A stretch of 64,000 nucleotides of DNA from Microbulbifer sp. HZ11 (GTDB taxonomy: Bacteria > Pseudomonadota > Gammaproteobacteria > Pseudomonadales > Cellvibrionaceae). The notes under the pieces are model-generated. The model ran no database searches and was not told the origin of the DNA. It was given only the letters and a program-made list of their open reading frames with translations. The stretch spans positions 310,001-374,000 of the forward strand of contig NZ_JELR01000001.1 of NCBI RefSeq assembly GCF_000708675.1, given 5' to 3'. Position numbers and translations under genes: made by a program. Positions 8,218-45,354 of the stretch are shown in pieces; positions within the stretch are counted from its first letter, which is position 1, and each line of letters begins with the position of its first letter.

Positions 8218-8270
8218 CTCCGGTCCGGCCGACTTATTTCTTTCACCCATTCCTGACACTGAGGTGTTCA

Positions 8271-8981: not shown

Positions 8982-8992
8982 TCGTAATGTAA

Positions 8993-9024
8993 ACCGGTGT
9001 AACGCGGTGTAATGGCGTGTAATG
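8993..9024 (+). repeat. Three imperfect ~10-base direct repeats upstream of the ComEA-like gene
   Basis: The motif GGTGTAA or GCGTGTAA occurs three times in a row at about one helical turn of spacing, 115-145 bases before the comEA-like start. Helically phased repeats can be protein-binding sites, but no known operator is recognised. Confidence 0.35.
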
Positions 9025-9139
9025 GCTCAGGGCTCAAAAGGTTGCAGATAGTTTGCTAGAGTGCTTCCGCCTGGGGAGGTTTGTGGTCCCACGGATTGAA
9101 GACCATAACACTTTGAGCAATTACAAAAAGGAATTTGCC

Positions 9140-9436: not shown

Positions 9437-9448
9437 ATAAGTACCAAA

Positions 9449-9477
9449 ACAGCGCCCCAGGGCGCTGTTTCTTTTTT
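9449..9477 (+). terminator. Rho-independent terminator after the ComEA-like gene
   Basis: The stem AACAGCGCC pairs with GGCGCTGTT around a CCAG loop and is followed by TCTTTTTTG, 12 bases after the stop codon. Confidence 0.85.
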
Positions 9478-9650
9478 GATCGATGAGGGCCGATAGTTGA
9501 GGGGCGTTGGCTGCACCTGGGAGTTAAGACAGGTTTCCTTGATGTTCAAAGGAGCGAGCTATATAGTTCAGCGCGAATAAAAAATGCACTGAATTGGCGC
9601 GCAAATCGACGCTACAGTCAGTATTTACGGGGCTTGGACGGGGATCGTTG

Positions 9651-10565
9651 ATGGGGGCGTATTTTGATCACGGTTGGTGGTCGCTGCTTATTTATTGCGC
9701 AGTGTCCGGCGCCGTCGCCGCGATGGTGTTGCGACTGCTTCTAACCCGGCTGCGTGAATTTGCCTTGGATGCGCCGAATCACCGCTCCCTACATGAAACG
9801 CCGGTGCCGAGAACTGGGGGTTGGGGGCTGCTGACTGGCACCTCTGTCGGATTACTGCTAAGTCAGCCGGAATTTCAACCTGGCATCGTTTTTGCCTTTA
9901 TCGCGTTACTGCTGGTTTCTGTGGCCGATGATTTGCGCTCGCTGAGCGCGCGATTGCGTTTCTCTGTACAGATTTTATCCGTAATGGTCTTGCTGTATTC
10001 GTTGGCGCTGTCGTTTGTTACGCCAAGGTCGTGGGTTATATGGCCGCTGTTGGTCCTGACCGGCGTCTGGGTTGTCAATCTGTATAACTTTATGGATGGC
10101 ATGGACGGGTTTGCCGGGAGTATGACGGCGATCGGCTTTGCAGCGTTGGGTGCGATCTGCTTTTTGAGAAATGTGCCGCAAATCGGAATTATTTGCCTGT
10201 TGGTCGCAACAAGTAGTGTCGTTTTTTTGTACTACAATTGGCCGCGTGCACAAATTTTCCTCGGTGATGCCGGCTCAACCGTAATCGGTCTGGCGGTTTT
10301 TGCAGTGAGTGTGGCAGGCTGGCAGCAGGGCGCCTTTGGGTTGGTGGTTCCGTTGCTGATATTTCTGCCGTTCTGGCTGGATGCCACGGTTACCCTGATC
10401 ATCAGAATGCTGCGCAGAGAGCGCTGGTGGGAAGCGCATCGCCAGCATTTTTACCAGCGGATGGCACTGAAGCACGGCGTGAAAACGTCATTGTTTATCG
10501 AAGTGGCCGTGATGGTGAGCACGTCTTTGTTAGCCCTGGTGCTGGTAGCATCCGGGGTGGCTTGA
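9651..10565 (+). CDS. Undecaprenyl-phosphate glycosyltransferase family 4 (WbpL/WecA-like)
   Basis: A polytopic membrane enzyme of the MraY/WecA superfamily that would load the first sugar phosphate of an O-antigen or exopolysaccharide repeat onto undecaprenyl phosphate. It has about ten TM helices, the N-terminal HRSLHETPVPRTGGWG segment, the Asp-rich VADDLRSLSAR motif, the NLYNFMDGMDGFAG motif, and FLGDAGSTVIG. ATG 9651 (MGAYFDHGWW) gives 304 residues and begins just before the first TM helix. An in-frame TTG at 9594 is possible but adds a non-family leader. The next gene is wbpM-like. Confidence 0.85.
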   Translation: MGAYFDHGWWSLLIYCAVSGAVAAMVLRLLLTRLREFALDAPNHRSLHETPVPRTGGWGLLTGTSVGLLLSQPEFQPGIVFAFIALLLVSVADDLRSLSARLRFSVQILSVMVLLYSLALSFVTPRSWVIWPLLVLTGVWVVNLYNFMDGMDGFAGSMTAIGFAALGAICFLRNVPQIGIICLLVATSSVVFLYYNWPRAQIFLGDAGSTVIGLAVFAVSVAGWQQGAFGLVVPLLIFLPFWLDATVTLIIRMLRRERWWEAHRQHFYQRMALKHGVKTSLFIEVAVMVSTSLLALVLVASGVA

Positions 10566-24607: not shown

Positions 24608-24684
24608 CGGAGTGTAGCGCAGCCTGGTAGCGCACCACACTGGGGGTGTGGTGGTCGTCGGTTCAAATCCGGCCACTCCGACCA
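24608..24684 (+). tRNA. tRNA-Pro (anticodon GGG)
   Basis: A complete 77-base cloverleaf. The acceptor CGGAGTG pairs with CACTCCG, the anticodon loop is CTGGGGGTG (GGG), the T arm is GGTTCAAATCC, and CCA is encoded. It marks the boundary between the conserved operon and an AT-rich accessory island, so it is a candidate integration site. Confidence 0.95.
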
Positions 24685-24738: not shown

Positions 24739-24945
24739 GTGTCTGGAATTTAAGTCCATATTAAGTCCTAGTGGCGACAATGCCGGCTGGTCTTGCAGCG
24801 CTTGCCATCAATAAGGAAGAGAGGTGGGCTGCTATCGCAATCGTATCCAGCAGTGACGCAGCCTCTGGAAGCCGTAGGTTGTGTCCGTCTTACTTTTACA
24901 TGTATAAGAACTACTGGTCGCTTAGTTTAAAAAAAGGGGGCGCAG
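24739..24945. other. Junction between tRNA-Pro and the accessory island
   Basis: About 200 bases with no convincing gene. The sequence TTAAGTCCATATTAAGTCC contains two TTAAGTCC-type direct repeats at 24750-24768, which could be a remnant of an integrase arm or att region, but no integrase gene or second tRNA-end repeat was found. A short open frame from 24771 has no recognisable domain. The end of the segment holds AAAAGGGGG, the ribosome site for the STAND gene. Confidence 0.4.
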
Positions 24946-27246
24946 TTGGATTTAACGAAAAATAAAAGAAAGACCGCGATGTTGCTTTATGAACTTGAGG
25001 AGTCATTGGGTAACTATGTTCGTGACAACGAGGGTGCCATATCACTCGGGAACTCTGGATATTCCGATGTAAATATCGGAAATGAGCTCGAGAAGAGTTA
25101 TCTCGACGATATTTTTAAGCTTGCTATTGCAGCAACTCAAGGTACAAGCTCGGAAAATCATGTTAAGCATTTGTACCGTTTAGCTCACGATTTATCTCTA
25201 TTTGAAATTCGCAATGCGATTGCCCATCCTAATCGTACTTTTTTTAATTGTTACTGGTATAGGGTTGCAGCAATTTGCTCTGACCCGGCATTCGAGCGGC
25301 TAGGGATCAAGGAGTTAATGGGCTGCCTGTATTCCGCAGAGAATAATACGATAGAAGATCCACCTGAAGGGTGGGAAGACCGCTATAAATGGGAGATTCC
25401 TAATAATTTGCCAGCTACAGCGGAATCCGATGTTACGGGACTCATTGGCCGTAATAAGGAGCATGACTACCTTACCAAAAAACTTAAATCGCCAAGAACT
25501 AACACGCTTGCCATCGTGGCCCCTGGAGGATTTGGAAAGACAGCCTTGGCGATAGACCTTTTGAAGTCGATTGTGTCCTCCCCCAGTTCCACAGATTGGG
25601 TTGATGGAGTTTGTTATTGCTCGCTAAAGGTTGAGGAGTTGACACAGGGTGGGGCCAAAAAAATTGCGTCTGACTTCGAATCTCTGCAATTAGAGGATCA
25701 AGTTCGTAAGATATTAAATGACGTATTCGATGAAAATTTTGATAATATCCGCGAATTTATTGCAAGTTACGCAGATAAGAGGCTTTTGATTTGCATTGAT
25801 AATCTTGAAACTATTCTTAGGGATAGTCCTGAGGTTTTTGAGGAGGTGGTAGATTTACTTCCACAAACGTGGAAGGTATTGGTTACAAGTCGAGTGACCA
25901 TCACAAATGCTTATATCCACACGCTGTCCGAGCTGCCTGAGCGATCAGCAGAACATCTTGCGCGCCTCTATAATAAGAATCGAGGTGGTGAGGAGTTAGA
26001 GAACTCGAGATATTTGGAAATTGCGAAACTCTGCTACTGTAACCCTCTAGCAATACGATTGACGATCGATTTAATTTTATCTGGAAATGAAATTCCTGAT
26101 TCAATTAGCCAGGCAAAATCTAGCATCTCTGAATTTTCATTTAAAAACTTAATCGATTCATTGCCCGATTTATCAGTTCAGGTGCTTGAGTTGATATTTA
26201 TCCGTGGCGTGTGCGATAGGAGAAGTGTGTGTGAGATATTAGGTTGTAATCCTGACCAGGCTGCAGAGGCGTTGTCTAATCTATTCCGTACATCGCTGAT
26301 CAAGAGGATTTCTTCTAAAGACGATGTTGAATCTTATCAGGTTAATGGCTCAGTTGAAGAGCTTCTCGCGTATAATCCAAAAAACTTACTAGTGCGAGAA
26401 AAAATACAACAAAAAATCTCCTCGAGAAAGGCAATAGCTACGCAAATTGATGTTCAGCAGCGAGTCAATAAAACCCCGTCTTGGCACATTGATTTTATTC
26501 CAGTTGATACTGATGACGCTCTTAAGATTATCTTGCAGAAGTCGAATAGAGCTTTCAAGAAGCGAGAGCTCCTCGCGGAAGCATATAAAGAATTTAAAGA
26601 AAAATATGTTCACTACTCGGAGAATGAGTTCTTTTTAAGGGCGTACGCCTTAATACTCTTAAAGCTTCAGTTAATTGATCAGGCTGAAGTTGAATACAAA
26701 AAGGCTGTTTCAGCATCTGATAATCCTTTGGTTATGATGTATGGTTTGGGGCGATTTTATCATTCTGCCATGCAGCCAGAAAAGGCTGTGGTCGTATACC
26801 GAGATATTCTTTCGGACTTTGGTAGGGTTGAATTGGTTGATGATTTTGAAGACTTTGAAAGATCTGTTTACCAAGGTTATTACCTGGGGCTGATTTATAC
26901 AGGGGAGTTCTTGCAGGTTATTGAGGAGACAAAAAAATGGAAGGAATTGGGTCATCTCAAGGGTATTGTAGGTACATTTAGAGCTACGGCCTTTAAAAGA
27001 AAGTTGGAGCTAGAAATACATTCGGATCATGAAGGGGCGAAGAAATCCCTAAATAGTGCGTTGAAGATTACAGACGAAGTGTTGTCTCATGAAGGCTACG
27101 CAGCTGCTTTCTGTGTTCAAGCATTTAAGTTGGTTGAAGAAATTATTGTATGTTTTGTAAATCAATTATTTCGTAAAAACAATGTTGATCTTGCCCGTGA
27201 TGCTCTAGTTTTTTGTGATAAGCACTTACTTGATATTGTTGACGGG
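24946..27246 (+). pseudogene. HEPN-like / STAND NTPase / TPR gene, 5' part, disrupted by an IS
   Basis: 767 codons of a large protein whose 3' end lies at 28885-29277, beyond an IS3-family insertion. An N-terminal helical domain (1-130) has the motif EIRNAIAHPNR at 87-97, matching the R-x4-H signature of HEPN ribonucleases (R89, H94). A STAND/NB-ARC-like NTPase core follows: Walker A APGGFGKT (192-199), Walker B LLICIDNLE (D285), the arginine-containing VLVTSR (311-316), and CNPLAIRL (365-372), the GLPL-like motif. A winged-helix-like segment comes next, then TPR-like helical repeats (about 550-760). The start TTG 24946 has AAAGGGGG five bases upstream. STAND proteins with nuclease domains are often antiphage sensors (Avs, NLR-like); that role is inference. 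The gene is AT-richer than its neighbours, suggesting transfer. As it stands the frame ends inside the IS (PYVSG then TAG). Confidence 0.75.
27243..27246 (+). repeat. Target-site duplication CGGG, left copy
   Basis: CGGG immediately precedes the left end of the IS3-family element and recurs at 28881-28884 after its right end. Removing one copy plus the element restores the STAND reading frame. Confidence 0.8.
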
Positions 27247-27293
27247 CCCTATGTGTCAGGGTAGTTGTCGCCTGAACTTTTCAGAGGACAACC

Positions 27294-27794
27294 ATGCCCC
27301 ACTATTCACCTGAACGTAAAGAGGCCATCCTCAAGAAGATGGCGCCGCCTCACAGCATGACCGTTGCCGAACTGGCGAGCCAGGAAGGCATCAGTACCGC
27401 TACCCTGTACAATTGGCGTAAAGCCGCCAGACAACGAGGTGCTGTTTTGCCTTCCAACTCTGCTACTCCCGATAATTGGAGTAGCGAAGAAAAATTCAAA
27501 GTCGTCCTTGAAACTGCCCCAATGACTGAGGCGGAGCTCAGTGAATACTGCCGCAAGAAAGGCCTTTACCCCGAGCAGATTGAGGCCTGGAAAACGGCCT
27601 GCATGTCAGCCAATGCTGTATCTGACGAGCAGTCTAAACGCAACCAAAAGGCCAGTAAGGCCGAGAAAAAGCGTATCAAAAAGCTTGAGGCAGAGCTGCG
27701 ACGTAAGGAGAAGGCGCTCGCTGAAACCGCTGCGCTCCTCACACTGTCAAAAAAAGCCGAGGCGATCTGGGGCCACAAAGACGAGGACGAATGA
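27294..27794 (+). CDS. IS3-family transposase OrfA, copy 1
   Basis: A 166-residue DNA-binding subunit. An N-terminal helix-turn-helix (MTVAELASQEGISTATLYNW) resembles IS3-type OrfA, a second helical segment (TEAELSEYCRKKGLYPEQIE) follows, and the C-terminal third is a Lys/Glu-rich coiled coil suited to dimerisation. Its stop overlaps the orfB start (ATGA at 27791), pointing to termination-reinitiation rather than a -1 frameshift. Confidence 0.9.
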   Translation: MPHYSPERKEAILKKMAPPHSMTVAELASQEGISTATLYNWRKAARQRGAVLPSNSATPDNWSSEEKFKVVLETAPMTEAELSEYCRKKGLYPEQIEAWKTACMSANAVSDEQSKRNQKASKAEKKRIKKLEAELRRKEKALAETAALLTLSKKAEAIWGHKDEDE

Positions 27795-28837
27795 CCAGCC
27801 TCCCAGATCGCCAGCAGATCGTTGCTCTGATTGCCGAAGCCAATCGCAGCGGAGCCCGGCTGGCCAAGGCCTGTGCCTTGCTGAACTTGAGCGTACGCAC
27901 CTATCAACGCTGGGTCACTGACGAGGTTGTCAGGGAAGATCAGAGGCCCGTGGTGCCGAGGCCGGAGCCATCGAACAAACTGACGGCTAAGGAGCGTCAA
28001 GCCGTAATAGCCCTGTGTAATCAACCTGAATACCGAAGCTGCCCTCCAGCATTTATTGTTGCTGACCAGCTGGATCAGGGCCATTATCTCGCCTCTGAAT
28101 CAACGCTCTACCGGGTTTTACATGAATACAATCAAGTCCACCGTAGAGGCCGCCAGAAGGCGCCGGAGCGGAAGCGAGCAGCGACCACACACAAAGCATC
28201 AGAACCAAACTGTCTGTGGTCGTGGGATATCTCGTGGCTACCAGGACCAGCATGCGGAACCTGGTATTACCTTTACTTGGTTATGGATGTTTACAGCCGG
28301 AAAATTGTCGGCCATGAGGTGTATGAGCGTGAGACCGGAGAGTTGGCTTGTGAGTTTATCGAGAAAGCCTGCTGGCGTGAGCGCCTGACGGCGAAGAGCA
28401 AGCCGCTTGTACTGCACTCCGATAATGGTAGCCCCATGAAGGCGGCGACATTCCTGGAGAAACTGTATGACCTTGGTATAACCCCCTCGAACAGCCGCCC
28501 CCGAGTGAGCAACGACAATGCCTACTCTGAGTCATTGTTCAAGACGCTGAAGTTCCGACCGGGCTTCCCGGCAAGTGGCTTCAAAACGATCAATGAAGCT
28601 CGGAACTGGGTGCTGGCGTTTGTGCGATGGTACAACACCGAGCATCGCCACAGTGGCTTGAACTACGTAACACCTGAGCAACGCCATAATGGAGAGGCTC
28701 ACGAGATACTGATTCAGCGCAGAGTTGTGCTTGAGGCTGCGAAGGCCAAGAACCCTCGACGCTGGTCAGGAGAAACCAGAAACCTCAGCTTGCCGGAGTC
28801 AGTAATGCTGAACCCGGACAAGGCGGTAAATTGTTAA
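27791..28837 (+). CDS. IS3-family transposase OrfB (DDE integrase), copy 1
   Basis: A 348-residue transposase catalytic subunit. It has an N-terminal helix-turn-helix (LAKACALLNLSVRTYQRW), an HTH_21-like region, and an rve-type RNase H fold with the DDE residues visible in WSWDISW, LHSDNGSP and NAYSESLFKTLKF, ending with WYNTEHRHSGLNYVTPEQRH. The frame is full length here, unlike in copy 2. Confidence 0.93.
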   Translation: MTSLPDRQQIVALIAEANRSGARLAKACALLNLSVRTYQRWVTDEVVREDQRPVVPRPEPSNKLTAKERQAVIALCNQPEYRSCPPAFIVADQLDQGHYLASESTLYRVLHEYNQVHRRGRQKAPERKRAATTHKASEPNCLWSWDISWLPGPACGTWYYLYLVMDVYSRKIVGHEVYERETGELACEFIEKACWRERLTAKSKPLVLHSDNGSPMKAATFLEKLYDLGITPSNSRPRVSNDNAYSESLFKTLKFRPGFPASGFKTINEARNWVLAFVRWYNTEHRHSGLNYVTPEQRHNGEAHEILIQRRVVLEAAKAKNPRRWSGETRNLSLPESVMLNPDKAVNC

Positions 28838-28880
28838 AGAGCTGATACCTTAAACGCGACAACTACGTTGACAGATACCG

Positions 28881-28884
28881 CGGG
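28881..28884 (+). repeat. Target-site duplication CGGG, right copy
   Basis: Matches 27243-27246 and flanks the right end of IS3-family copy 1. Confidence 0.8.
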
Positions 28885-29277
28885 CATCCAAGGGCGAATT
28901 TGGACTCGGTTGTTGAGAAAGTTAGTTCGTTGATGGAGATTGATGTACCCGATAATCCTTTCAAATCAAAGTATAGATGGAAAACATACCTTTCTCCGAT
29001 AATTTCTAACGGGGTTGAAATCGATGAAATTGTTGGAGAGTTCGTTTTAGTGAAAATTGTGCATTTCGCTAAGAATGAAAAGGGGAACCGGTCTAATTTC
29101 CTTTTTGCAAAGGATGCAAGTGATGAAGAATACTTTGTTCATTTGCAATATCTGACTAATTGTGAGTGGCAGGACTGGGTGAAGCTGCGAGAGGGGAACC
29201 AATTGGCGGTTCTTTCTTTTGATAGTGTTAAGGGAAAAGCTCATCATGTGACGGATTGTCTGATGATAAATACGTAG
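28885..29277 (+). pseudogene. STAND gene, 3' part: OB/cold-shock-like C-terminal domain
   Basis: Continues the frame of 24946-27246 once the IS and one CGGG are removed: ...DIVDG joins HPRANLDSVVEK, giving an ~897-residue protein. The C-terminal ~80 residues (EFVLVKIVHFAKNEKGNRSNFLFA, EEYFVHLQYL, VKLREGNQLAVLSFDSVKGKAHHV) have the strand pattern of a cold-shock or S1-like OB fold, including a DVFVH-like YFVH, which suggests nucleic-acid binding. This is a by-eye fold guess. A GTG/TTG-started fragment (TTG 28900) could still be made. Confidence 0.7.
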
Positions 29278-29295
29278 TTAAATTTGCCCGTACAG

Positions 29296-29599
29296 TTATT
29301 GACAGTACTCCAAGGGAGGGGCGTTCGCCCCTCCTATTGCTCTCGCCTCCGCTCCGCAGCTTTCGAATTCAGCAACTGGTCGAACTGTCCATTCGTGAAA
29401 GCGGGTGACAACCCGAGATTTGGCTTGGAATAGCAGGCCGATCAGTTTTTGAGCTTCTTGGCCGTATTTGTTTAATCCCTCTTTGGCGACGTGCAGCGCC
29501 CGCAACGGTAGGCTGGCTCGTTCTGGAGTGGGGCCACCAGATAGCTCGGTAAAGGTCTCCCAGTCTCCCTTATCAGCGGCCTCGATGAGTCCTTTTAAA
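29296..29599 (-). pseudogene. Remnant resembling a P2-type phage replication endonuclease (GpA) C-terminus
   Basis: An open minus-strand frame runs from the IS66 left end to a stop at 29296. It reads EAADKGDWETFTELSGGP, then RASLPLRALHVAKEGLNKYG, then RVVTRFHEWTVR. The DW...GGP...R..LPLR...YG order, and the position at a protein C-terminus, resemble the replication gene A proteins of P2-like phages. The 5' part is missing at the IS66 border, so this is a fragment of a decayed prophage or phage satellite. The resemblance is from memory of the family. Confidence 0.5.
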
Positions 29600-29679
29600 G
29601 TAAGCGCTCAATTAACCCCATCTAAAACTCGGCAACCCTGCCCGGTACGCTTCTGATTTTTAACGATCAGGAGATCCAC

Positions 29680-29976
29680 ATGACCACCCAAAGTAAAACC
29701 GATTTCTGGCAGCAGCACATTGCGGACTGGCATGCTAGTGGTTTATCTCAGGCTGTCTACTGTGACCAGCACAATCTAAAGCTCAGCACCTTCACCTACT
29801 GGCGCAGCAAGCAGAGCAAGCCCCGGCCGAAATTGATCCCGGTATCTATGCCGACAACCTCCGATCTGGCTGAGCTCTCACTGCCGGGCGGGATTCAGCT
29901 TCAGCTTCCGGTCACCGCTCTTGGGCAAATACTGCCGATACTGTGGCGCCTGCTGCGAGAGCAGCGCACATGTTAA
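29680..29976 (+). CDS. tnpA: IS66-family accessory protein TnpA
   Basis: A 98-residue protein beginning MTTQSKTDFWQQHIADWHAS, with a helix-turn-helix (GLSQAVYCDQHNLKLSTFTYW) and a short tail, typical of IS66 TnpA. ATCAGGAGATCCAC supplies the ribosome site. It overlaps tnpB by seven bases. Confidence 0.88.
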   Translation: MTTQSKTDFWQQHIADWHASGLSQAVYCDQHNLKLSTFTYWRSKQSKPRPKLIPVSMPTTSDLAELSLPGGIQLQLPVTALGQILPILWRLLREQRTC

Positions 29977-30326
29977 GGCCGGCACAGTCCGCCCAAGTTT
30001 ACCTGTACATGGAGCCGGTGGACATGCGCAAGTCCATCGACGGCCTCGCGGCACTGGTGGAGCTGGAGATGGAGCTGTCGCCAGCGCTCGAGGCCATCTT
30101 CGTGTTCTGCAACCGCGGGCGCGACAAAATCAAGCTACTCTACTGGGAACGCAACGGCTTCGTGGTCTGGTACAAGCGCTTAGAGAAACAGCGCTTCCAG
30201 TGGATGCGCGATGCGGACTTTGTCTATCAGCTACGCACTGGTCGCGATCTAAACCAGCTCCTCGACGGGCTCAATATCTGGAGCCAAAAACCCCACCGAT
30301 CTATCCAGTTCGACTCGGTTACCTGA
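29970..30326 (+). CDS. tnpB: IS66-family accessory protein TnpB (Orf2)
   Basis: A 118-residue protein with the strongly conserved IS66 Orf2 motifs VYLYMEPVDMRKSIDGLAAL and NRGRDKIKLLYWERNGFVVW. ATG 29970 is chosen, overlapping the tnpA stop; a longer frame from 29943 is unlikely. TnpB is needed for transposition in IS66 elements, but its biochemical role is unclear. Confidence 0.92.
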   Translation: MLRPAQSAQVYLYMEPVDMRKSIDGLAALVELEMELSPALEAIFVFCNRGRDKIKLLYWERNGFVVWYKRLEKQRFQWMRDADFVYQLRTGRDLNQLLDGLNIWSQKPHRSIQFDSVT

Positions 30327-30343
30327 GCCCGCGCTGCGATACA

Positions 30344-30459
30344 ATGGCGGTCATGAAGAAGCTGACCGCCGAACAACTCCCAGATGATATCGATGCGCTG
30401 AAAGCGCTTCTGGTTCAGCAGCAATCTCAGTTGCTGCAGAAGCAGCAGCGTATCGACCT
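30344..30459 (+). pseudogene. tnpC: IS66 transposase TnpC, 5' part
   Basis: Codes for MAVMKKLTAEQLPDDIDALK and the start of the N-terminal coiled coil, then is cut by the IS3-family copy 2 at ...QQRIDL. A second ATG at 30353 is also possible. Joined to 32100-33594 it gives a ~536-residue TnpC. Confidence 0.88.
30456..30459 (+). repeat. Target-site duplication ACCT, left copy
   Basis: ACCT precedes the left end of IS3-family copy 2 and is repeated at 32096-32099. Confidence 0.85.
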
Positions 30460-30502
30460 CGGTATCTGTCAACGTAGTTGTCGCGTTTAAGGTATCAGCT
30501 CT

Positions 30503-31551
30503 TTAACAATTTACCGCCTTGTCCGGGTTCAGCATTACTGACTCCGGCAAGCTGAGGTTTCTGGTTTCTCCTGACCAGCGTCGAGGGTTCTTGGCCTTCG
30601 CAGCCTCAAGCACAACTCTGCGCTGAATCAGTATCTCGTGAGCCTCTCCATTATGGCGTTGCTCAGGTGTTACGTAGTTCAAGCCACTGTGGCGATGCTC
30701 GGTGTTGTACCATCGCACAAACGCCAGCACCCAGTTCCGAGCTTCATTGATCGTTTTGAAGCCACTTGCCGGGAAGCCCGGTCGGAACTTCAGCGTCTTG
30801 AACAATGACTCAGAGTAGGCATTGTCGTTGCTCACTCGGGGGGCGGCTGTTCGAGGGGGGTTATACCAAGGTCATACAGTTTCTCCAGGAATGTCGCCGC
30901 CTTCATGGGGCTACCATTATCGGAGTGCAGTACAAGCGGCTTGCTCTTCGCCGTCAGGCGCTCACGCCAGCAGGCTTTCTCGATAAACTCACAAGCCAAC
31001 TCTCCGGTCTCACGCTCATACACCTCATGGCCGACAATTTTCCGGCTGTAAACATCCATAACCAAGTAAAGGTAATACCAGGTTCCGCATGCTGGTCCTG
31101 GTAGCCACGAGATATCCCACGACCACAGACAGTTTGGTTCTGATGCTTTGTGTGTGGTCGCTGCTCGCTTCCGCTCCGGCGCCTTCTGGCGGCCTCTACG
31201 GTGGACTTGATTGTATTCATGTAAAACCCGGTAGAGCGTTGATTCAGAGGCGAGATAATGGCCCTGATCCAGCTGGTCAGCAACAATAAATGCTGGAGGG
31301 CAGCTTCGGTATTCAGGTTGATTACACAGGGCTATTACGGCTTGACGCTCCTTAGCCGTCAGTTTGTTCGATGGCTCCGGCCTCGGCACCACGGGCCTCT
31401 GATCTTCCCTGACAACCTCGTCAGTGACCCAGCGTTGATAGGTGCGTACGCTCAAGTTCAGCAAGGCACAGGCCTTGGCCAGCCGGGCTCCGCTGCGATT
31501 GGCTTCGGCAATCAGAGCAACGATCTGCTGGCGATCTGGGAGGCTGGTCAT
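30503..31551 (-). pseudogene. IS3-family transposase OrfB, copy 2, frameshifted
   Basis: Matches copy 1 OrfB to ...YDLGITP, then shifts frame at the run after ATAACC (six instead of five C's, 30855-30860) and again at GCCG-C6-GAG (six instead of five, ~30838-30843), so translation ends at LEQPPPE. The C-terminal part (30503-30835, from SNDNAYSE) holds the catalytic Glu in another frame. The product lacks the E of the DDE triad and should be inactive unless slippage restores the frame; copy 1 could act in trans. A homopolymer sequencing error is an alternative. Confidence 0.88.
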
Positions 31552-32048
31552 TCGTCCTCGTCTTTGTGGCCCCAGATCGCCTCGGCTTTTTTTGACAGTG
31601 TGAGGAGCGCAGCGGTTTCAGCGAGCGCCTTCTCCTTACGTCGCAGCTCTGCCTCAAGCTTTTTGATACGCTTTTTCTCGGCCTTACTGGCCTTTTGGTT
31701 GCGTTTAGACTGCTCGTCAGATACAGCATTGGCTGACATGCAGGCCGTTTTCCAGGCCTCAATCTGCTCGGGGTAAAGGCCTTTCTTGCGGCAGTATTCA
31801 CTGAGCTCCGCCTCAGTCATTGGGGCAGTTTCAAGGACGACTTTGAATTTTTCTTCGCTACTCCAATTATCGGGAGTAGCAGAGTTGGAAGGCAAAACAG
31901 CACCTCGTTGTCTGGCGGCTTTACGCCAATTGTACAGGGTAGCGGTACTGATGCCTTCCTGGCTCGCCAGTTCGGCAACGGTCATGCTGTGAGGCGGCGC
32001 CATCTTCTTGAGGATGGCCTCTTTACGTTCAGGTGAATAGTGGGGCAT
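31548..32048 (-). CDS. IS3-family transposase OrfA, copy 2
   Basis: A 166-residue protein identical to copy 1 OrfA (27294-27794). It is intact and could still bind the ends of both copies. Confidence 0.9.
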   Translation of the reverse strand: MPHYSPERKEAILKKMAPPHSMTVAELASQEGISTATLYNWRKAARQRGAVLPSNSATPDNWSSEEKFKVVLETAPMTEAELSEYCRKKGLYPEQIEAWKTACMSANAVSDEQSKRNQKASKAEKKRIKKLEAELRRKEKALAETAALLTLSKKAEAIWGHKDEDE

Positions 32049-32095
32049 GGTTGTCCTCTGAAAAGTTCAGGCGACAACTACCCTGACACATAGGG

Positions 32096-32099
32096 ACCT
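32096..32099 (+). repeat. Target-site duplication ACCT, right copy
   Basis: The pair with 30456-30459. Removing IS3-family copy 2 and one ACCT restores ...QQRIDLLEEQILLMRD in the tnpC frame. Confidence 0.85.
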
Positions 32100-33594
32100 G
32101 CTCGAAGAGCAGATTCTACTGATGCGGGACAAGCACTTTGCCCGCAGCAGTGAACAGTCCCCGGATCAGTACGGCTTCTTTGATGAGGCTGAAGTCGAAT
32201 CGGAAACGCCTGCGCCGGATCTTGCCGAAGAACCCCCTTCTGAAAACGCCACAAAACCTCAGTCGAGAAAGACCTCCGGTCGCCGCGCCTTGCCGGCGGA
32301 ACTTCCACGTGTCCGCCGTGAGCACGATCTGCCGGAGGAGCAAAAGAGCTGTACTTGCGGCTGCCAGCTCCAGGCTATTGGCGAAGAGATCAGCGAACAA
32401 CTCGACATCATCCCGGCCAAAATCCAGGTCATCCAGCACGTACGCAAGAAGTACGCCTGCAAGACCTGCGAGTCCAATGTCAAAACGGCGCCACTACCGG
32501 CCCAGCCCATCCCGAAAAGCAATGCCAGTCCCGGCCTGCTGGCCCAGGTCACCGTTGCCAAATACCAAGATGCACTGCCGCTGGCCCGACAGGAAAAGAT
32601 CTTCGCCCGATATGGCGTAGATCTCCCACGTAACACTCTGGCCAACTGGATTATCCGCTGCGGTGAGCTGGTACAGCCACTGCTGAACCTGATGGAAGAC
32701 CGATTACGATCAGGTCCCATCATTCAGTGCGATGAAACACCAGTGCAGGTACTCAAGGAGCCCGACAAGCCACCGGAGAGCAAATCCTATATGTGGGTAC
32801 GCCTCGGCGGCCTCCCGGATGAGCAAGTCGTACTCTACGACTACCACGCCAGCCGCAGTGGCGACGTGGCCGGCCGCCTATTGTCCGGCTACACCGGCTA
32901 TCTACAGACCGACGACTATGCCGGTTACCACGCCGTGGGTAGTGAAAACACCATCACGCACATCGGTTGCTGGGCCCACGCGCGGCGGAAATTTATCGAG
33001 GCACAAAAGGTTACCGGCGGCAAAGATAAAAAGAGCAAAAGCAAATCGAAATCGCCCAGTAAAGCCGATATTGCATTGAATTACATCGGCCACCTCTATG
33101 GCATCGAGCGGCAAGCTAAAACGTGTACTGCGGAAGAGCGCTATCAGATCCGCCAGGCGAAAAGCCTGCCCGTACTGGACAAGCTGCGCGGGTGGCTCGA
33201 TAAAAACCTACCGAAAATACTACCCAAGAGCACACTTGGCAAAGCAATGTCGTACCTCGATAAGAACTGGACGAAGCTCTACCGGTATACGGAAGATGGC
33301 CGCCTACGTATCGGCAACAACGCCGCAGAAAATGCCATACGTCCGTTCGTGATCGGCCGCAAGAACTGGCTCTTCAGTGATACGCCGAAAGGGGCCAAAG
33401 CCAGTGCGGCGCTATACAGCCTGATTGAAACGGCTAAGCTGAATGGCCTGGAGCCGCACAAATATCTGGCTGCGGTATACAGCCGTCTGCCACAAGCCGA
33501 ATCAGTGGAGGCCATCGAGGCATTGCTACCGTGGAAGATCAGAGCTGCTGGGCTACCTGAAAGCAATACTCGCGTCGAGGGCGGGGAAGACTGA
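32100..33594 (+). pseudogene. tnpC: IS66 transposase TnpC, 3' part
   Basis: Continues the frame from 30344-30459 (LEEQILLMRDKHFARSSEQ). It contains the Cys-rich zinc-finger segment (CTCGCQ, CKTCESN), and the DDE-type core with IIQCDETPVQV, QTDDYAGYHAV and RIGNNAAENAIRPF. The C-terminus ends just before the IS66 right end. Read alone from an internal ATG (32122) it would give a ~490-residue protein lacking the N-terminal coiled coil; it is probably non-functional. Confidence 0.9.
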
Positions 33595-33602
33595 TCGCTT
33601 AC

Positions 33603-33950
33603 GAGGATCTAGTCAATGGATTGCGGGTTAAAGACTGGTATCTTTCATCCGACTTGCAGTGGGTGCTTCCGCATTCTCAGATGGGTTTGTCTTTTTCTTC
33701 CAATTGGCAGCACCTGAAAGGTTTGCACAAAATGAAGCAAAAGCACAATCCTGGTGCTGCGGTACATGTATATTGGGTTCTTGAGACCGCAGATATTCCG
33801 CCGGGGCTTGAATTTTTGCCTGATGAACGTAAAAAGGGACACTATTTTTTGACGGTGACGCAGAAAATGCTGGTACATCAATTAATAGAAAAGTTGCAGT
33901 GGATTGCAGATCGAATGTCTGTGATTGAAGATGCCGGAGTAGCGCTATGA
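33603..33950 (+). pseudogene. Tse2-like (ADP-ribosyltransferase-fold) toxin domain, 5'-truncated by IS66
   Basis: The frame runs open from the IS66 border (EDLVNGLRVKDWYLSSDLQW) to TGA at 33950. The C-terminal part, ADIPPGLEFLPDERKKGHYF then MLVHQLIEKLQWIADRM, follows the pattern IPP-x-L...HY...M...L seen at the end of P. aeruginosa Tse2, a T6SS toxin. No start codon with a ribosome site is visible except TTG 33621, so the beginning was probably lost with the IS66 insertion. Its stop overlaps the next gene (ATGA). The family call rests on a remembered alignment and is moderate. Confidence 0.5.
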
Positions 33951-35844: not shown

Positions 35845-36462
35845 TCAGGGCTGTGCTGAAACCGCAGTTTGGTGGGCAGACTTAAGGAGATTCTGAACGT
35901 ATGCGTTCCTGCTGGGGCTGACCTGAGGGCGGTGGCTCTCGGTACTCGCGGCCAGCCAGTTTTCGTTCTGTATGGCCTTGTTGAACTTTATGAACTGTTT
36001 TTTCAGTTTGGTAGCCCCAATGTTAAATATCATGTCGAACAATGCTAACTGAACTTTATCCGGAAAACTGTCGAAGTTTTTTGCGTAGCCATTTGCAGTG
36101 CTGTAGAGCGTGCTTAACTCGATGTAGAAACTGCTGATATGCCGATCCCGCTGAATCTCTATGTCACTGTCTTTCATGATGAGTTTGCAATACTGTTTGT
36201 ACCATTTGGCGCGAAAGTTCCGCTTCTGTTTTGATATGTGATCAAACTCTTGCTGCTTTTCAGCGGTGGTGGCTGGAGTCGTCGCGATCCCGTTTTGTGT
36301 GTTGTACATTGGGATTGTTGTTATGGCATGGCGGTCTGGAATCAGGTGTCCTATGCCTACGGTGACTTTGCCAACCGTATCTAAATAAAGATGGTTGTAA
36401 CGGCCTTCGTACTCTTCGAGCTTCTTCGCCACGGTGTGCTTTATTGCCGGGTTAAGAGGCAT
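35845..36462 (-). CDS. T4-lysozyme-like (GH24) muramidase
   Basis: A 205-residue protein with the GH24 catalytic arrangement: E19 in YEG, D28 in YLD and T34 in KVTVGIGH, with spacing +9 and +15 exactly as E11-D20-T26 in T4 lysozyme. The C-terminal half has LALFDMIFNIGATKLKK and ends with residues usual for phage-type lysozymes (VSPSRNAYVQNLLK). No signal peptide is visible, so it would need a holin, phage or T6SS route. No other phage lysis genes are nearby, and a lipoprotein gene follows, so a secreted antibacterial effector is likelier than a prophage endolysin. Confidence 0.75.
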   Translation of the reverse strand: MPLNPAIKHTVAKKLEEYEGRYNHLYLDTVGKVTVGIGHLIPDRHAITTIPMYNTQNGIATTPATTAEKQQEFDHISKQKRNFRAKWYKQYCKLIMKDSDIEIQRDRHISSFYIELSTLYSTANGYAKNFDSFPDKVQLALFDMIFNIGATKLKKQFIKFNKAIQNENWLAASTESHRPQVSPSRNAYVQNLLKSAHQTAVSAQP

Positions 36463-36764
36463 GCTTTCATCCCGTAATGATTTTCTAAAGCCTAATTTTA
36501 TCTCTGTCGCGTCGAAAATTGAATCGAGAGTTCAGGTACGATCGTTCAGAGTCTCGAGCATAAGGCGTAGGGATTTGATAAAGCGATCAGAGTCCTGTTA
36601 TCGGTAACCGTGAAACGTGCTAGGTGTGGTGGCACGGCGAAATATATTGAACAGCCTAGCTGTCAGTTTGGCGCGCAAAGCTTCATTGGGTCCCAGCTTT
36701 TTTCCCACAACACCAAATCTCTGCCTACACTTGTTCTTCGATAAAAAGAATCACAGGATTGCAG
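36463..36764. other. Divergent intergenic region with no gene
   Basis: About 300 AT-richer bases between the leftward muramidase and the rightward ATP-grasp gene, presumably holding both promoters. CACAGGATTGCAG before ATG 36765 is the only clear signal. An overlapping frame from 36617 is a shadow of the ATP-grasp gene. Confidence 0.5.
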
Positions 36765-39830: not shown

Positions 39831-40904
39831 TTACTGCTTGCCGGGGGCTTTCAGAAATTCGGTCAGTGCCGCCATATAGCGGTCAAAGTCTTCAAACTGC
39901 GGTACGTGACCGATGCCGTCCAGCTCCACCAATTGCGCATTGGGGATGGCTTCTGCGGTTACTTTACCGAGTCTGTCGTAACGGCCGAGATCGGCGCGGG
40001 TGGACTCCGGCGCGCGATTGCGGCCAATGGCGGTGCGATCGCGGGTGCCGATAATCAGCAGGGTGGGGGCCTTCAGGTCGCCGAATTCGTACAGCACCGG
40101 TTGGGTGAACACCATATCGGATGTGCGCGCGTCAATTTCCGCAATCTTGTCTGCGTCCGGACCAATGGTCCAGCCGGCCTGAATAGCCAGGAGCGGGTCG
40201 TAGGCCGCTTTCCATTTACCGTCAAAGTAGGCGGCGGTCATATAGCTTTTCACCTTCTCCGGGGTCTGCTGTTTTTCCTGGGCAATGGCCTGCTCGACGG
40301 GCTGATAGGGGGTGAACCGCTTCCAGTCTTCCAGGCCGATGGGGTTGATCAGCACCAGCTTTTTGACGGTTTCCGGGTACATCAGGGCAAAGCGGGTAGC
40401 GAGCATCCCGCCCATGGAATGGCCGGCGACGGTGGCGCGGGAAACGTCGAGCTTGTCCAACAGTGCTTTGGTGCTGTCCGCCAGCGCCTGAAAGGTGAAC
40501 TGGAAGCCCTCCGGCTTACTGGATTTGCCAAAGCCAATCTGATCCGGCGCGATAACCCGATAGCCCTGTCTGCTGAGGGCATCGATGGTGCTCTGCCAGT
40601 AGGCGCCGGAGAAATTCTTGCCGTGCAGTAACACAACGGTTTTGCCATTGGCGTCCGCTGCCGGCGGTACGTCCATATAGACCATTTCCAGTGGCTGCTG
40701 CTGGTCGCGGAACGCAAAGGTCTCGACCGGGTAGGGGTAGTCCATATCGCTCAAGCGGGCATCCTGGGGTTTTACCGCAGGGGCGCTTTCTGCGGCCAGG
40801 GAAGCCGGCGGCCAGATCAGGCCGAGCGTGGCCATGACCAGGGGTATAAGAAATCGGGGCAACAGGGGCAGTCGGATCCACGGTTGGCGGGTGGCATTCA
40901 GCAT
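39831..40904 (-). CDS. Secreted alpha/beta hydrolase
   Basis: A 357-residue protein with a signal peptide (cleavage after SLA). The alpha/beta-hydrolase core has the oxyanion motif [12 protein letters not shown], the nucleophile elbow [14 protein letters not shown], an acid in [10 protein letters not shown], and the catalytic His in [11 protein letters not shown]. The substrate is unknown. Confidence 0.85.
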
Positions 40905-41251
40905 AAGTCTTCGTACTCCTTGAGGTATTGCGAATGTTCGGCTGGGTGAGCCGTGGTTCTGTCTCTCTGCACGATCGCGCCGCTGCTAATTTGTTCTGTT
41001 TATAAAACGACCTGGACAGCAGCGCCGATGATCATAGCACTGATAGATGACTGACCGTATTTACCGCGATGGATTCCCGGTGGCTGTCGGGTCTACCACA
41101 GGGCATGGCTCCAAGGGGCTATTTCTGTGCGAGGAATCACAAATTTCATCGAGTTCTGTTTAAAATGGCTGCTGGTCCCTCTCCGTAGATGATTCTTCGT
41201 GAATAAATCGTGCCGCTTCATCGGCGGCCACAATAAGTTCGAGACGTAGCA
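40905..41251. other. Intergenic region with no gene
   Basis: About 350 bases upstream of two divergent genes. I see no ORF with a ribosome site, no tRNA and no strong hairpin. It presumably carries promoters for the hydrolase and the coiled-coil membrane protein. Confidence 0.5.
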
Positions 41252-43147
41252 ATGGCCCGCACCCAGCAAATCGAAAACCACTTCCGCCAGACCGTATCCG
41301 ATGCCCGCAATCTTGCCGCCACCCTGGAACAGGGCCAGGCGGAAATGCCGCTGGCCGAGCACTTCGGTAGCCTGATTCAATCTCTGGATCGTCGGCCGTT
41401 TTCCGTCACGCTGCTGTGCCTGGACAAGCCCAGTCGGGAGCGGGTGCTGAAGTGGCTGTACGGCCACCAGTTTGCGGTTTTCTCACTGCAGATTTCCGGG
41501 CAGATCGGCCTGTTGGAAGTGCAGCTGAAGGACAAGGGCTACGCGGTTGAAAACAGCAGTGGCTCGCGTCAGGAGTTCGATACCTGGGAGGAGCTGGTAC
41601 AGGTGGTGGGCGATCCGTCCGGCATGACGGACAGCAGTGGCCAGGAACTTACACTGGTGACGGAGCGGGTAAACGACCTGAAGAACCTCAACCTGCTGTT
41701 GCCGGACAGCACAAAATTTGTGCAGGAGTCGCCCGCATTACTGACACGCATTCTGCGCGAGACCAATATTCTGATGGTGGCAGGGCATCCGCACTACGCT
41801 TTGTCGGAAATCGAGCGCGGTGTGATCAATGATCTGATGGCGGAGATGGAAGGCTTCTGGCCGTTGCTGCCCGTGGATGAGCTTGCGGAAGAGGTGAGTA
41901 TTCCGGAGAACGGCTGGTGGCAGCAGGTGGCACGCCCCAAGATCAACCTGCCACCCAAGCTGATTACCACCCATGTTGAGGCCGAACTGCCCGGGTTCCT
42001 TACCAGCCCGGAAAATGCGCTGCGCCAGACCTTGCAACTGCTGCTGCTCGGTCGCAAGGCGGAGACTGCGGTCGAGGCGGTCAACGAGCGGCTGTCTCAG
42101 GAGCTGCGTCAGCTGGAGAGCCGCAAAAAGCGCGAAGCGCGCAAAACCCAGACCAGCGCTGCATTGGGCAATGACATGGGTTTCGCCAGTCAGCTGCGCA
42201 ACCACCTCGGGGATGGGGTGAGTGACATCAATAAATCCCTGCAGGAAAAGGCCCGTCGCAACGACACTGGCACCGGCAACGCCGGTCAGCAGTTGAAGCA
42301 GTTTATCGACTCCATGCACATCGACGATCTGGCGATGGAGAAGGGGTACAAATCGATCAAGCTATCTCTCAGCAACAAGTATCAGGAATCCCTTACCCGT
42401 TTTCTGCGCGACGCCTTGAAAAACGGGGTTAAACGCGATGCGGAAATGCTCAATAGCGAACTGGATTCCCTCAAGCGCTCCCTGTCCAATGAATTCAAAA
42501 GCAAGACCGGCGTGGAGCCGGTGCTGGAGTTCGATCCGCTCAATCGCGATGGCCTGATTGATGATCTCGCCAGCTCGGTGAATCTGGAGATGCGCTACCA
42601 GGGCGAGATGCCCAAGCGCGGCTTTTTTCAGCGTTTGGGGGAAGCGCGCCGCGCGGCCTTCGTCATTCTGATGAGTGTTTCGCTGCTGGCGATGATGGGT
42701 ATCAATCTGCGGGATAACCCACTGATCGGCGTCATTATTTTCTTTGTGTTTGTCGGTGCTTTTGTTTTCACCTATTACGGCTGGAAGCGGGAGGACGAGG
42801 AGCGCCTTGAGAAAGAGGTCAGCCGCGTGCGCGAGGAAGTTCTCGGCAGCAGCCGCCGGCTATTGGGGGAACTGACCCGTGAGAAGCAATCGCGCATCGG
42901 CGATTTTCTCGAGCGCATCAAAAAACAATGGCAACTGGTGCTGGACCGCACCTTGCAAGACTGGCAACAGCGCGAGCGCCAGACCAGCGAAAAGCAATCC
43001 CATCAGTCCCGCCAGCGCCTGGCGAATATCGATACGCTGATCAATCAGTGGCAACGGCAACAGCTACCCGCGCAGAAACTGCAGGGCAACGTAAGCAAGA
43101 TCGTCAGTGATTGTCGGGCCCAACTCGAAATGCTGGTGGACGCTTGA
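41252..43147 (+). CDS. Two-TM coiled-coil protein with a degenerate dynamin-like N-terminus
   Basis: 631 residues. Residues 48-110 look like the first strands of a dynamin-type GTPase (RPFSVTLLCLDKPSRERVLK), but the P-loop GxxxxGK[ST] is replaced by LDKPSRER, so nucleotide binding is unlikely. A long helical, coiled-coil middle follows (NERLSQELRQLESRKKREAR), then two TM helices (about 478-497 and 503-522), then a basic amphipathic C-terminal coil (REKQSRIGDFLERIKKQW). This resembles bacterial dynamin-like membrane-remodelling proteins in layout. It overlaps the opposing DUF4384-like fragment by 84 bases. Confidence 0.55.
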   Translation: MARTQQIENHFRQTVSDARNLAATLEQGQAEMPLAEHFGSLIQSLDRRPFSVTLLCLDKPSRERVLKWLYGHQFAVFSLQISGQIGLLEVQLKDKGYAVENSSGSRQEFDTWEELVQVVGDPSGMTDSSGQELTLVTERVNDLKNLNLLLPDSTKFVQESPALLTRILRETNILMVAGHPHYALSEIERGVINDLMAEMEGFWPLLPVDELAEEVSIPENGWWQQVARPKINLPPKLITTHVEAELPGFLTSPENALRQTLQLLLLGRKAETAVEAVNERLSQELRQLESRKKREARKTQTSAALGNDMGFASQLRNHLGDGVSDINKSLQEKARRNDTGTGNAGQQLKQFIDSMHIDDLAMEKGYKSIKLSLSNKYQESLTRFLRDALKNGVKRDAEMLNSELDSLKRSLSNEFKSKTGVEPVLEFDPLNRDGLIDDLASSVNLEMRYQGEMPKRGFFQRLGEARRAAFVILMSVSLLAMMGINLRDNPLIGVIIFFVFVGAFVFTYYGWKREDEERLEKEVSRVREEVLGSSRRLLGELTREKQSRIGDFLERIKKQWQLVLDRTLQDWQQRERQTSEKQSHQSRQRLANIDTLINQWQRQQLPAQKLQGNVSKIVSDCRAQLEMLVDA

Positions 43148-43516
43148 TCCATTTAACAGCTGCCCCAGCGCCGTCTCGGTCAGTGGCACATCGGTGACCA
43201 GTGCAATGTAGGAATCCGTTGTGGGGGTGTCCGGTGCAATCAGCCCCGCCTCCCACACACCGCCGCTTTCCGGGATGGTGATGGCGTTTGCCCGGCGCAT
43301 GGTCAGGTCCTGTCGCAATATATCCACCTCACCATTTTGATACACGCCCAGCAGATGCAGATAGCCGGGGTTCCCGGTTTTTATCTGCCAGCGGTATTCG
43401 GCGGCCGCAGGTACCTGGAGGGGCAGTCGTTGGCCGTTGACACGCTCCGGGTAGAGGGTGAGTTGGCGACGGTCAGGCTTATCAGGAATGGTTTTGCGGT
43501 TGCTGTTCTTGGCATA
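43064..43516 (-). pseudogene. DUF4384-like C-terminal domain, cut off by an in-frame TGA
   Basis: Continues the same frame as the coiled-coil gene at 43517-45328 after a single TGA (43517-43519): YAKNSNRKTIPDKPDRR, then YRWQIKTGNPGYLHLLGVYQ, then APDTPTTDSYIALVTDVPL. The GYL-x-LL-x-V...G-x-V...AP-x-P-x-TD-x-x-I-AL-V-x-D pattern is that of DUF4384. There is no ATG or GTG with a ribosome site before residue ~60, so the domain is probably made only by readthrough, or the gene is broken. Whether the TGA is real needs raw reads. Confidence 0.65.
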
Positions 43517-45328
43517 TCAGATATTCGCCCAACCATTGGGTGTGCTGTTCGCTTTATCCAGTTTCTCGCGCTTGCGCTGTTCCGCTACCCGCGCCCAGTC
43601 TTCGGCCTCGTCGCGACTGGATTGGGCATCACTTTTTTCCGCGGTGCAGCTGGATGTCATCCGCTGGCACTGGCCCAGTCCATTGCTGGCATCGCCGTGA
43701 TGCTGAGCGGTCTGTTCCGCGGAAACCTTGGCCGCGTCGGCGTGCTCCTGAGCTTTGTCGCGGTTGGCCTCGGCGGTGACCTGGGCGTTGAACGCATCCA
43801 GGTTTGCATCCAGTGCGCGATTCTTAGCATCCATGGCTTCTTTGAGCAGCTCGTTGAAGCGGCTGCGACTTTCCTGCGCGGCGTCCTCGGCGTAACTCAG
43901 CAGATCCTGGATGTCGGACTTGAGGCCGTCGGTGTCGTCCCGTGTCTGTTGGGTATCCTGGGACAGCCGCTGGATCTGCGCGAGTAATTTGTCGACTTCA
44001 CTGGCGTGGACGTCTGCTGTGGCGTGCGCCCGCTGCGCGGCATCGTCGAAACGCTCGGCAGACTGCATAGCGGTTTGCGCATTGGCGGACGCGGTCTGTG
44101 CGGAAGAGACTTCGCTCTGGGCGCGCCCCACCGCAGCGGTGGCCTGGGCGGTTGCAGACGCGGCTTCGTTCGCCGCGCTGCCCGCGTGCGAGGAAGCCGC
44201 GTTGGCCTTGGCGTTGGCGTCTTCCGCGGACTGGCTGTTGCTCTCGGCGGTTTCCGCCTGTTGCTGTGCCTGTTCGCTGGCCTGTTGTGCAAGGTTGGCC
44301 TGTTGTTCGGTTTCTGCACGCAGACGCGCGGCCTCGGCGGCGAGATTGTCTGTGCTCTGCTGCTGATCACGGGCAGCGTCGGCAGCACGCTCCGCGGCAG
44401 ACTTTTGCGTGTCAGCGGATTCCGCCGAGGAATTTGCGGTGTTTGCGTTATCTCCCGCGGCACTGGTGGCATCACCGGCGTTTTCGGCCTGCTGCTGTGC
44501 GCGTCCGGCGGAATCGGTCGCGGTATCTGCACCGGTTTGCGCGCTGGCGGCAGCGGTCCCGGCATCGCCGGCTTGGTCCGCGGCGGTACCGGCGGCCTGG
44601 GACGCGTCGTTGGCCTGCGAGCGTGCAGCATCGGCAGCCTGGCCAGCCTTGCCGGCGTGGTCGCGCGCCTGCTCACTGGCGCTGCCGGCCGCGGATGCGG
44701 CGGACTGGGCTTCCTGCGCGGAGGCATTGGCAATGCTGCTTTGGGACTGCGCATCGCTTGCCGCACTACCGGCGGTCTGGGCACTGCCCTGAGCGCTGCT
44801 GGCGGCACTGGCGGAGTTGCCGGCCTGGGCCTGTGCGTTGCTGGCCGCGCTTTGCGCGGCACCACTGGATTGTTGCGCCTGGCTGGCAGCGGCATTGGCG
44901 GCCGTGGCAGCGCGGCTTGCCTCTTGCGATGCGTTTTCTGCCTGGCGGGAGGCACGGCCGGCATCTTGTGCTTCGCGCTCTGCGGTATCTGAGGCGCTTC
45001 CGGCCTTGGCCGCGTGTCGCTGTGCTTCGCTGGTTGCCTGCTGGGATTGCTGTGACTGTTGCTGGGCGGTATTGGCGCTGCTCTGTGCCTGTTGCGCCTG
45101 CTGGCTTGAGCGGGTGGCAGATTCGGTAGCCGACTGAGCCGTGCTGCGGGCCTGTTGCAGGGCTTCGCGGCTGGCCGCGGCCTGCTGCTGGGCAATACCT
45201 GCTTCGATTTCCGCGGCCTGTTTGTCGGCCTGTGCCTGCTGGGCAGCCTGGCGGGCCTGTTCGGCTTCCGCGCGAGCCCGCGCCAGTGCGGCTTCCAGTT
45301 CGCTGCGGTCTTTGGTTGTGGAATCCAT
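43517..45328 (-). CDS. Ala/Gln/Ser-rich coiled-coil protein, paralog 1
   Basis: 603 residues, no signal peptide. The N-terminus (LEAALARARAEAEQARQAAQ) is a normal coiled coil. The central ~400 residues are low complexity, built from Ala, Gln, Ser and Asp with an apparent 7/14-residue period (AxxAxxQAxxA). The final ~150 residues are mixed coiled coil (LLSYAEDAAQESRSRFNELL) with Cys. The stop TGA lies just after NGWANI and the frame continues into a DUF4384-like domain. It is a tandem paralog of the next gene upstream. Confidence 0.65.
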   Translation of the reverse strand: MDSTTKDRSELEAALARARAEAEQARQAAQQAQADKQAAEIEAGIAQQQAAASREALQQARSTAQSATESATRSSQQAQQAQSSANTAQQQSQQSQQATSEAQRHAAKAGSASDTAEREAQDAGRASRQAENASQEASRAATAANAAASQAQQSSGAAQSAASNAQAQAGNSASAASSAQGSAQTAGSAASDAQSQSSIANASAQEAQSAASAAGSASEQARDHAGKAGQAADAARSQANDASQAAGTAADQAGDAGTAAASAQTGADTATDSAGRAQQQAENAGDATSAAGDNANTANSSAESADTQKSAAERAADAARDQQQSTDNLAAEAARLRAETEQQANLAQQASEQAQQQAETAESNSQSAEDANAKANAASSHAGSAANEAASATAQATAAVGRAQSEVSSAQTASANAQTAMQSAERFDDAAQRAHATADVHASEVDKLLAQIQRLSQDTQQTRDDTDGLKSDIQDLLSYAEDAAQESRSRFNELLKEAMDAKNRALDANLDAFNAQVTAEANRDKAQEHADAAKVSAEQTAQHHGDASNGLGQCQRMTSSCTAEKSDAQSSRDEAEDWARVAEQRKREKLDKANSTPNGWANI

Positions 45329-45354
45329 GACAGTGTCCTAGTTCGTTGACCGCA

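What the first reader, a model, noticed from the sequence alone, without database searches (positions are those of the whole stretch)
24946..29277. HEPN-like / STAND NTPase / TPR / OB-fold gene: a possible new antiphage sensor, broken by an IS
Rejoining 24946-27246 and 28885-29277 gives an ~897-residue protein. It has an RN-x3-H motif (R89, H94) in an N-terminal helical domain, Walker A APGGFGKT, Walker B LLICIDNLE, TPR-like helices and a cold-shock-like end (YFVH...KLREG). STAND proteins with nuclease effectors are established antiphage sensors. A HEPN effector paired with a C-terminal RNA-binding-like OB fold is not an arrangement I know. The gene is AT-rich and sits by tRNA-Pro. Domain calls are by eye.
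Basis: partly seen in the sequence, partly recalled or inferred. Interest (0 to 1): 0.8.

Follow-up and report, generated by a model that had tools for sequence, protein, structure and literature searches.

The report
IS-broken HEPN–NLR-like mobile defence gene
A bacterial gene built like an animal or plant immune sensor, with a likely RNA-cutting head and a nucleic-acid-binding tail, sits in a cargo slot left by a phage-related mobile element and has been broken by a jumping gene; its design was already described from sequence, but I found no report of it being tested.

The parts
24608..24684 (+). tRNA-Pro(GGG), inferred integration site of the element; its 3' 25 bases recur as a perfect copy at the far end of an intact-looking element in sibling locus L127 (not elsewhere in the window)
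24769..29287 (.). Variable cargo interval: conserved flank ends at 24768, conserved P2-like gene A tail begins at 29288; other genes occupy it in the sibling genomes whose frames were read
24946..27246 (+). 5' part of the HEPN-NTPase-TPR-OB gene (767 residues, TTG start; frame stays open to 27264 inside the IS)
24946..25410 (+). HEPN-like all-helical domain; R89-N90-x3-H94 at 25210-25227
25411..26415 (+). STAND (NB-ARC) NTPase and winged-helix region: Walker A 25519-25542, Walker B 25783-25809, TSR 25879-25893, GLPL-like NPLAIRL 26041-26061 (borders approximate, taken from the homologue model)
26416..27246 (+). TPR-type helical repeats (part before the IS; border approximate)
27247..28880 (+). 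IS3-family-like element (two transposase-like frames; family name recalled), flanked by 4-bp direct repeats
28885..29277 (+). 3' part of the same gene (130 residues and stop)
29035..29274 (+). OB/cold-shock-like C-terminal domain
29288..29598 (-). Relic 3' end of a P2-like replication gene A; 85% identical in protein to L127's copy over 109 residues. The PF05840 model itself finds only the fuller sibling copies, not this relic

Best explanation
The gene encodes (in intact relatives) a single-protein, NLR-like defence sensor carried as cargo by mobile elements. TPR helices, perhaps with the OB tail, sense something made during infection; the NB-ARC NTPase then switches from a closed ADP state to an ATP-bound ring, as in resistosomes and apoptosomes. 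Ring assembly brings N-terminal HEPN domains together in pairs, forming the Rx4H RNase site, which cuts RNA and stops growth. The OB tail either reads foreign RNA or places the substrate. In this genome the gene arrived in the cargo slot of a P2-gene-A-type element at tRNA-Pro; most of the element has since been lost, and an IS split the gene before the OB domain. Shown here: architecture, motif conservation, predicted folds, mobile context, cargo variability, disruption. Inferred: oligomerisation, RNase activity, trigger, antiphage outcome.
Confidence: 0.66

Rival explanations
1. It is a competition device of the mobile element (superinfection exclusion, element-element exclusion, or an addiction/toxin module) rather than a host defence gene; same biochemistry, different trigger and beneficiary.
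For: Sits on plasmids as small as 8 kb, on a viral contig, and in a gene-A-adjacent slot like the one where P2 carries old and tin (passage in PMC9122126).
Against: I saw no recurrent partner gene in the seven relative loci whose frames I read by eye (L021, L022, L024, L020, L026, L032, L154); the large sensor architecture suits trigger-dependent activation.
Confidence: 0.18
2. A STAND-type regulator (MalT-like) of RNA or transcription, the HEPN-like domain being a structural or binding module.
For: STAND proteins include regulators (recalled; MalT also appears in the listing); some HEPN families are inactive (2013 paper passages); the HEPN structural match is modest.
Against: R, N, H are among the most conserved residues; patchy spread (2 of 390 genomes of the order at E<=1e-60, window included) and mobile carriers do not suit a housekeeping regulator.
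Confidence: 0.12
3. The window copy is simply a dead remnant and the antiphage story is irrelevant to this strain; alternatively the 772-residue tail-less product retains a function. (About this copy only; compatible with the best explanation.)
For: IS insertion before the OB domain; most of the carrier element gone.
Against: The 5' frame is open and carries HEPN, NTPase and most TPRs.
Confidence: 0.6

Closest known systems
Bacterial HEPN-STAND(-TPR-S1 / cold-shock) proteins of Anantharaman et al. 2013 (PMC3710099), e.g. Npun_F6454, MED222_16016, Desac_1927, and the Bacillus cereus example
   Same: N-terminal HEPN with Rx4-6H, STAND NTPase, TPR, C-terminal OB-type RNA-binding domain (passages)
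   Different: I did not align those exact proteins; the window's tail is divergent and has no Pfam match, and no CSD or S1 is among the 25 of 43 families listed for its close group
Avs/AVAST and bNACHT antiphage STAND proteins
   Same: Effector + STAND NTPase + C-terminal repeats, single-gene sensors (recalled, and passage)
   Different: Pfam favours AAA_16/NB-ARC over NACHT (NB-ARC 22, NACHT 4 of 24 members); HEPN effector; OB tail; no Avs model among the PADLOC matches of the family, though an Avs4-like gene lies near one relative (L030)
TIR-NLR / SIR2- and nuclease-STAND systems of the P2/P4 hotspots (Rousset et al. 2022, PMC9122126)
   Same: STAND cargo in diversity hotspots of P4-like and P2-like elements; the P2 hotspot lies beside gpA (passages)
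   Different: HEPN instead of TIR/SIR2/Mrr; here the slot lies between gene A and tRNA-Pro in an element where I saw no capsid genes by eye, rather than between gpA and gpQ
Plant NLR resistosomes (NRC4; 6j5t, which I recall as ZAR1), CED-4, Apaf-1
   Different: N-terminal effector and C-terminal sensor are unrelated (recalled); oligomerisation of the bacterial protein untested; ORC/Cdc6 ATPases score similarly

Membership tests
HEPN superfamily | Rx4-6H motif | tested here: met
   RNAIAH; R, N, H invariant in 26 of 26 rows, motif in 29 of 29 close-group rows
HEPN superfamily | Characteristic all-helical fold | tested here: inconclusive
HEPN superfamily | RNase activity of paired domains | not testable with these tools
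   no assay
STAND NTPase, NB-ARC type | Walker A/B, TSR and GLPL-like motifs with NB-ARC fold | tested here: met
   motifs; PF00931 E 9.8e-5, just under its cut-off, in the window protein, E<=0.1 in 22 of 24 members; plant NLR, CED-4 and Apaf-1 structural matches
TPR repeat protein | Tandem helix-turn-helix repeats | tested here: met
   TPR models below cut-off in the window protein, TPR_2 at E<=0.1 in 12 of 24 members, TPR profile matches, helical solenoid in the homologue model with an 8-repeat TPR chain among its matches
Cold-shock/OB domain | Five-stranded OB fold | tested here: inconclusive
   beta-beta-beta-alpha-beta-beta order at 829-899 of the L023 model, read from DSSP only; the domain was not searched alone
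Cold-shock/OB domain | Sequence homology to CSD | tested here: inconclusive
   profile match to distant relatives' tails E 2.4e-7 (controls); those match CSD structures at E 1.5e-16; window-group profile alone does not
Known antiphage system (PADLOC) | Convincing hit to a system model | tested here: not met
   best E 0.015 for P0001 and for P0002; best 7.2e-5 for any of 24 members (mad8, a short NTPase stretch in the member shown)
P2-type gene-A-adjacent cargo slot | Variable cargo next to gpA 3' end | tested here: met
   gene-A sequence or relic in 6 of 24 tRNA-Pro loci; frames read in four of these siblings (L124-L127) differ from one another and from the window

The most novel reading that the evidence does not exclude
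A bacterial resistosome whose executioner is an HEPN RNase: NB-ARC ring assembly pairs HEPN domains, while the exchangeable C-terminal OB domain (cold-shock, S1 or the divergent tail seen here) is the RNA sensor or RNA guide, so that foreign or abnormal RNA is both trigger and target. It spreads as cargo of P2-type elements and small plasmids across at least Proteobacteria, Bacteroidota and Cyanobacteria.
Probability: 0.33. Interest if true: 0.8.

Novelty: new member of a known kind. Interest (0 to 1): 0.45.

Why it matters
It gives a compact set of intact single-gene candidates for an NLR-like immune receptor with an RNase effector, a class proposed from sequence in 2013. My literature searches (listings) turned up no paper reporting a test of it; the library lacks most subscription papers, and one 2026 screen validated four HEPN-containing systems of which I saw only one described. 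The change of C-terminal OB type between relatives makes the question 'does it sense RNA?' directly testable by domain exchange in laboratory strains.

Tried and rejected
Rejected: 'arrangement unknown' (prior art). Rejected as real homologues: five of the seven matching family genomes (query stretches of 92-106 residues in frames of 758-798 aa), which look like ClpA-type proteins; so 2 of 144, the window's genome and one other. Reverse transcriptase/AbiLi-type PADLOC hits among neighbours (two members each): for L032 the frame looks like a group II intron maturase by eye, so I did not count it as defence. The dGTPase beside L029 may be a housekeeping dgt. Whole-model structure search in 'pdb' mode was never accepted; the OB tail was not folded or searched alone, so its topology rests on one model and on profile comparison. 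A viral-library structure search was not run. HEPN_Swt1 and CSD do not appear for the window pieces in Pfam. Neighbour scans used 150 of the 189 ORFs listed (mostly the shorter ones dropped); the tallies show only 25 of 70, 162 and 75 families; single assignments were made for 20 neighbours (5 of 20 matched at E<=1e-8, one of them a helicase matching many generic models); no control for the base rate. The N-terminal profile of the distant group used only the 40 of 59 rows that have the motif, which favours agreement at the motif itself. PF05840 finds no gene A in the window's genome, G073 or G069 (2 of 5 genomes positive); the relics there rest on similarity to the sibling copies.
Full report
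WHAT IS THERE. Frame 24946-27246 (767 residues, TTG start) and frame 28885-29277 (130 residues) are parts of one gene. Between them is a 1634-bp element with two transposase-like frames (27294-27794, 27791-28837), flanked by a 4-bp direct repeat; one search found it at 7 other places in the genome, one partial. Each half matches the same single open frames elsewhere. The halves were analysed apart; intact relatives supply the whole protein.

FAMILY. Counting ORFs, 29 rows form a close group at over 250 bits; these include two copies of the window itself and two duplicate pairs (L010/L027, L016/L017), so 25 distinct relatives, two of them truncated (L038, L040). They come from Acinetobacter, Methylobacter, Psychrosphaera, Paraglaciecola, Salinicola, Teredinibacter, Photobacterium, Vibrio, Pedobacter, Flavobacterium and other Bacteroidota, Anabaena, Hydrogenophaga, Sideroxydans, Rubritalea, Archangium and others, at about 31-41% identity to the window protein. 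A further 59 rows are distant; 40 of the 59 also have R[ND]x3H in the first 260 residues. The gene is rare and patchy: really 2 of 144 genomes of the family (7 passed the threshold, 5 judged spurious), 2 of 390 of the order at E<=1e-60 (window included), in the class 4 of 369 at E<=1e-20, the window and 3 distant NTPase matches, 11 of 72,556 plasmid records, 6 of them covering most of the query, none of 50,697 phage records, 1 IMG/VR contig.

CONTEXT. All 26 genus genomes searched match the tRNA-Pro neighbourhood. I fetched 23 of the 25 siblings (L137, L149, L150 and L151 are short because contigs end, L137 with nothing downstream), scanned all 23 by tblastn and read the frames of 8. In L124 the conserved flank ends at the same window base (24768) and resumes at 29288 with the end of a gene that in L125 and L127 is a fuller P2-like replication gene A (PF05840, E 3.3e-87 and 1.2e-86, 2 of 5 genomes positive; 42% to Salmonella phages SEN4/SEN5). 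PF05840 finds nothing in the window's genome or G073; the relics there rest on similarity to the sibling gene. Gene A or a relic follows tRNA-Pro in 6 of 24 loci, window included (small pieces only in L126). The interval between holds different cargo in the four siblings read: in L125 a reverse transcriptase (PF00078, 5.6e-14) and Abi_C (PF14355, 4.5e-16); in L127 a phospholipase-D-like and two DNA-methylase-like frames (by eye); in L124 frames I recall as sce7726/sce7725-like plus a RES-like one (by eye); in L126 HNH- and GIY-YIG-like frames (by eye) and a transposase. L127 shows the whole element: 25-base tRNA end repeated perfectly at 832 and 10213, a tyrosine integrase (PF00589), gene A and cargo. 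The gene-A relic is 87% identical between the window and L124, where the chromosome on either side is 94-97%, as if cargo and gene-A tail were replaced together. In P2-like phages of E. coli the slot between gpA and gpQ is a described antiphage hotspot where P2 has old and tin (PMC9122126, passages). Two further relatives are near frames I read as P2-like by eye: L136 follows tail-like frames (the largest matches 376 phage records, 18 of them named Peduovirus, the best ones unannotated), and L154 lies about 6-8 kb from gpD- and gpU-like frames.

OTHER NEIGHBOURHOODS. A phage-type integrase lies about 0.24 kb from L022's gene, an integrase-like frame beside L026's, a Rep3-like plasmid frame on L020's contig (by eye; Rep3_N once in the tally); the A. 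baumannii relative is on plasmids from 8 kb. L024's gene follows guaB- and guaA-like frames (by eye). Of 20 neighbours scanned singly, 5 matched PADLOC models at E<=1e-8: Avs4-like by L030, dGTPase by L029, PDC-M29A by L041, Ppl/mad3 by L032, a generic helicase by L035. Many others are metabolic (25 of 75 families shown). This is supportive, without a base rate.

PRIOR ART. [quoted passage not shown] Passages of PMC7159879 name S1-like and cold-shock OB domains in NTP-dependent conflict systems. Passages of PMC13092281 report four validated HEPN-containing systems, of which only one (CBS-HEPN) is described in what I saw, so a tested relative is not excluded. Passages of PMC9122126 name no HEPN-STAND-OB system. 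Literature searches: (listings).

MECHANISM. Inferred from families: ligand sensed by TPR and/or OB, NB-ARC exchange and ring, HEPN pairing, RNA cleavage, growth arrest. Nothing beyond architecture, predicted folds, conservation and context is shown. The window copy lacks the tail and is probably inactive or altered.

HOST. It shares a family with a genome whose relative (L010) gives the same alignment figures and the same tail sequence as Teredinibacter waterburyi's (L027). Genus not determined.

Noticed in passing
L127 (G071:C8, reverse coordinates about 832-10237): Intact-looking ~9.4-kb integrative element: perfect 25-bp tRNA-Pro repeats, tyrosine integrase, AlpA-like stretch, P2-like gene A, nuclease/methylase-like cargo, no capsid genes seen by eye; possibly a small satellite-type element using P2-type replication.
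   Followed up: partly
window 29599-33602: IS66-like element (name recalled) lying against the gene-A relic, itself interrupted by a second, inverted copy of the same IS3-type element (30457-32095).
   Followed up: no
window 35980-36471: About 0.5 kb, most of a phage-lysozyme-like frame (35845-36462, PF00959 E 1.3e-5), is absent from sibling L124 where the flanks abut.
   Followed up: no
window 33621-33950: 109-aa frame with weak match to the Tse2 ADP-ribosyltransferase family (PF18648 E 0.0015, below cut-off).
   Followed up: no
window 40769-54960: About 14 kb of the window is missing at the corresponding place in L124; includes an Ala/Gln-rich 603-aa frame.
   Followed up: no
L073:7431-10487: Planctomycetales relative carries an S1 domain in place of the cold-shock tail: natural exchange of OB type.
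   Followed up: partly
L054:3544-4983: A Heimdallarchaeota bin holds a partial relative with the RN-x3-H motif.
   Followed up: no
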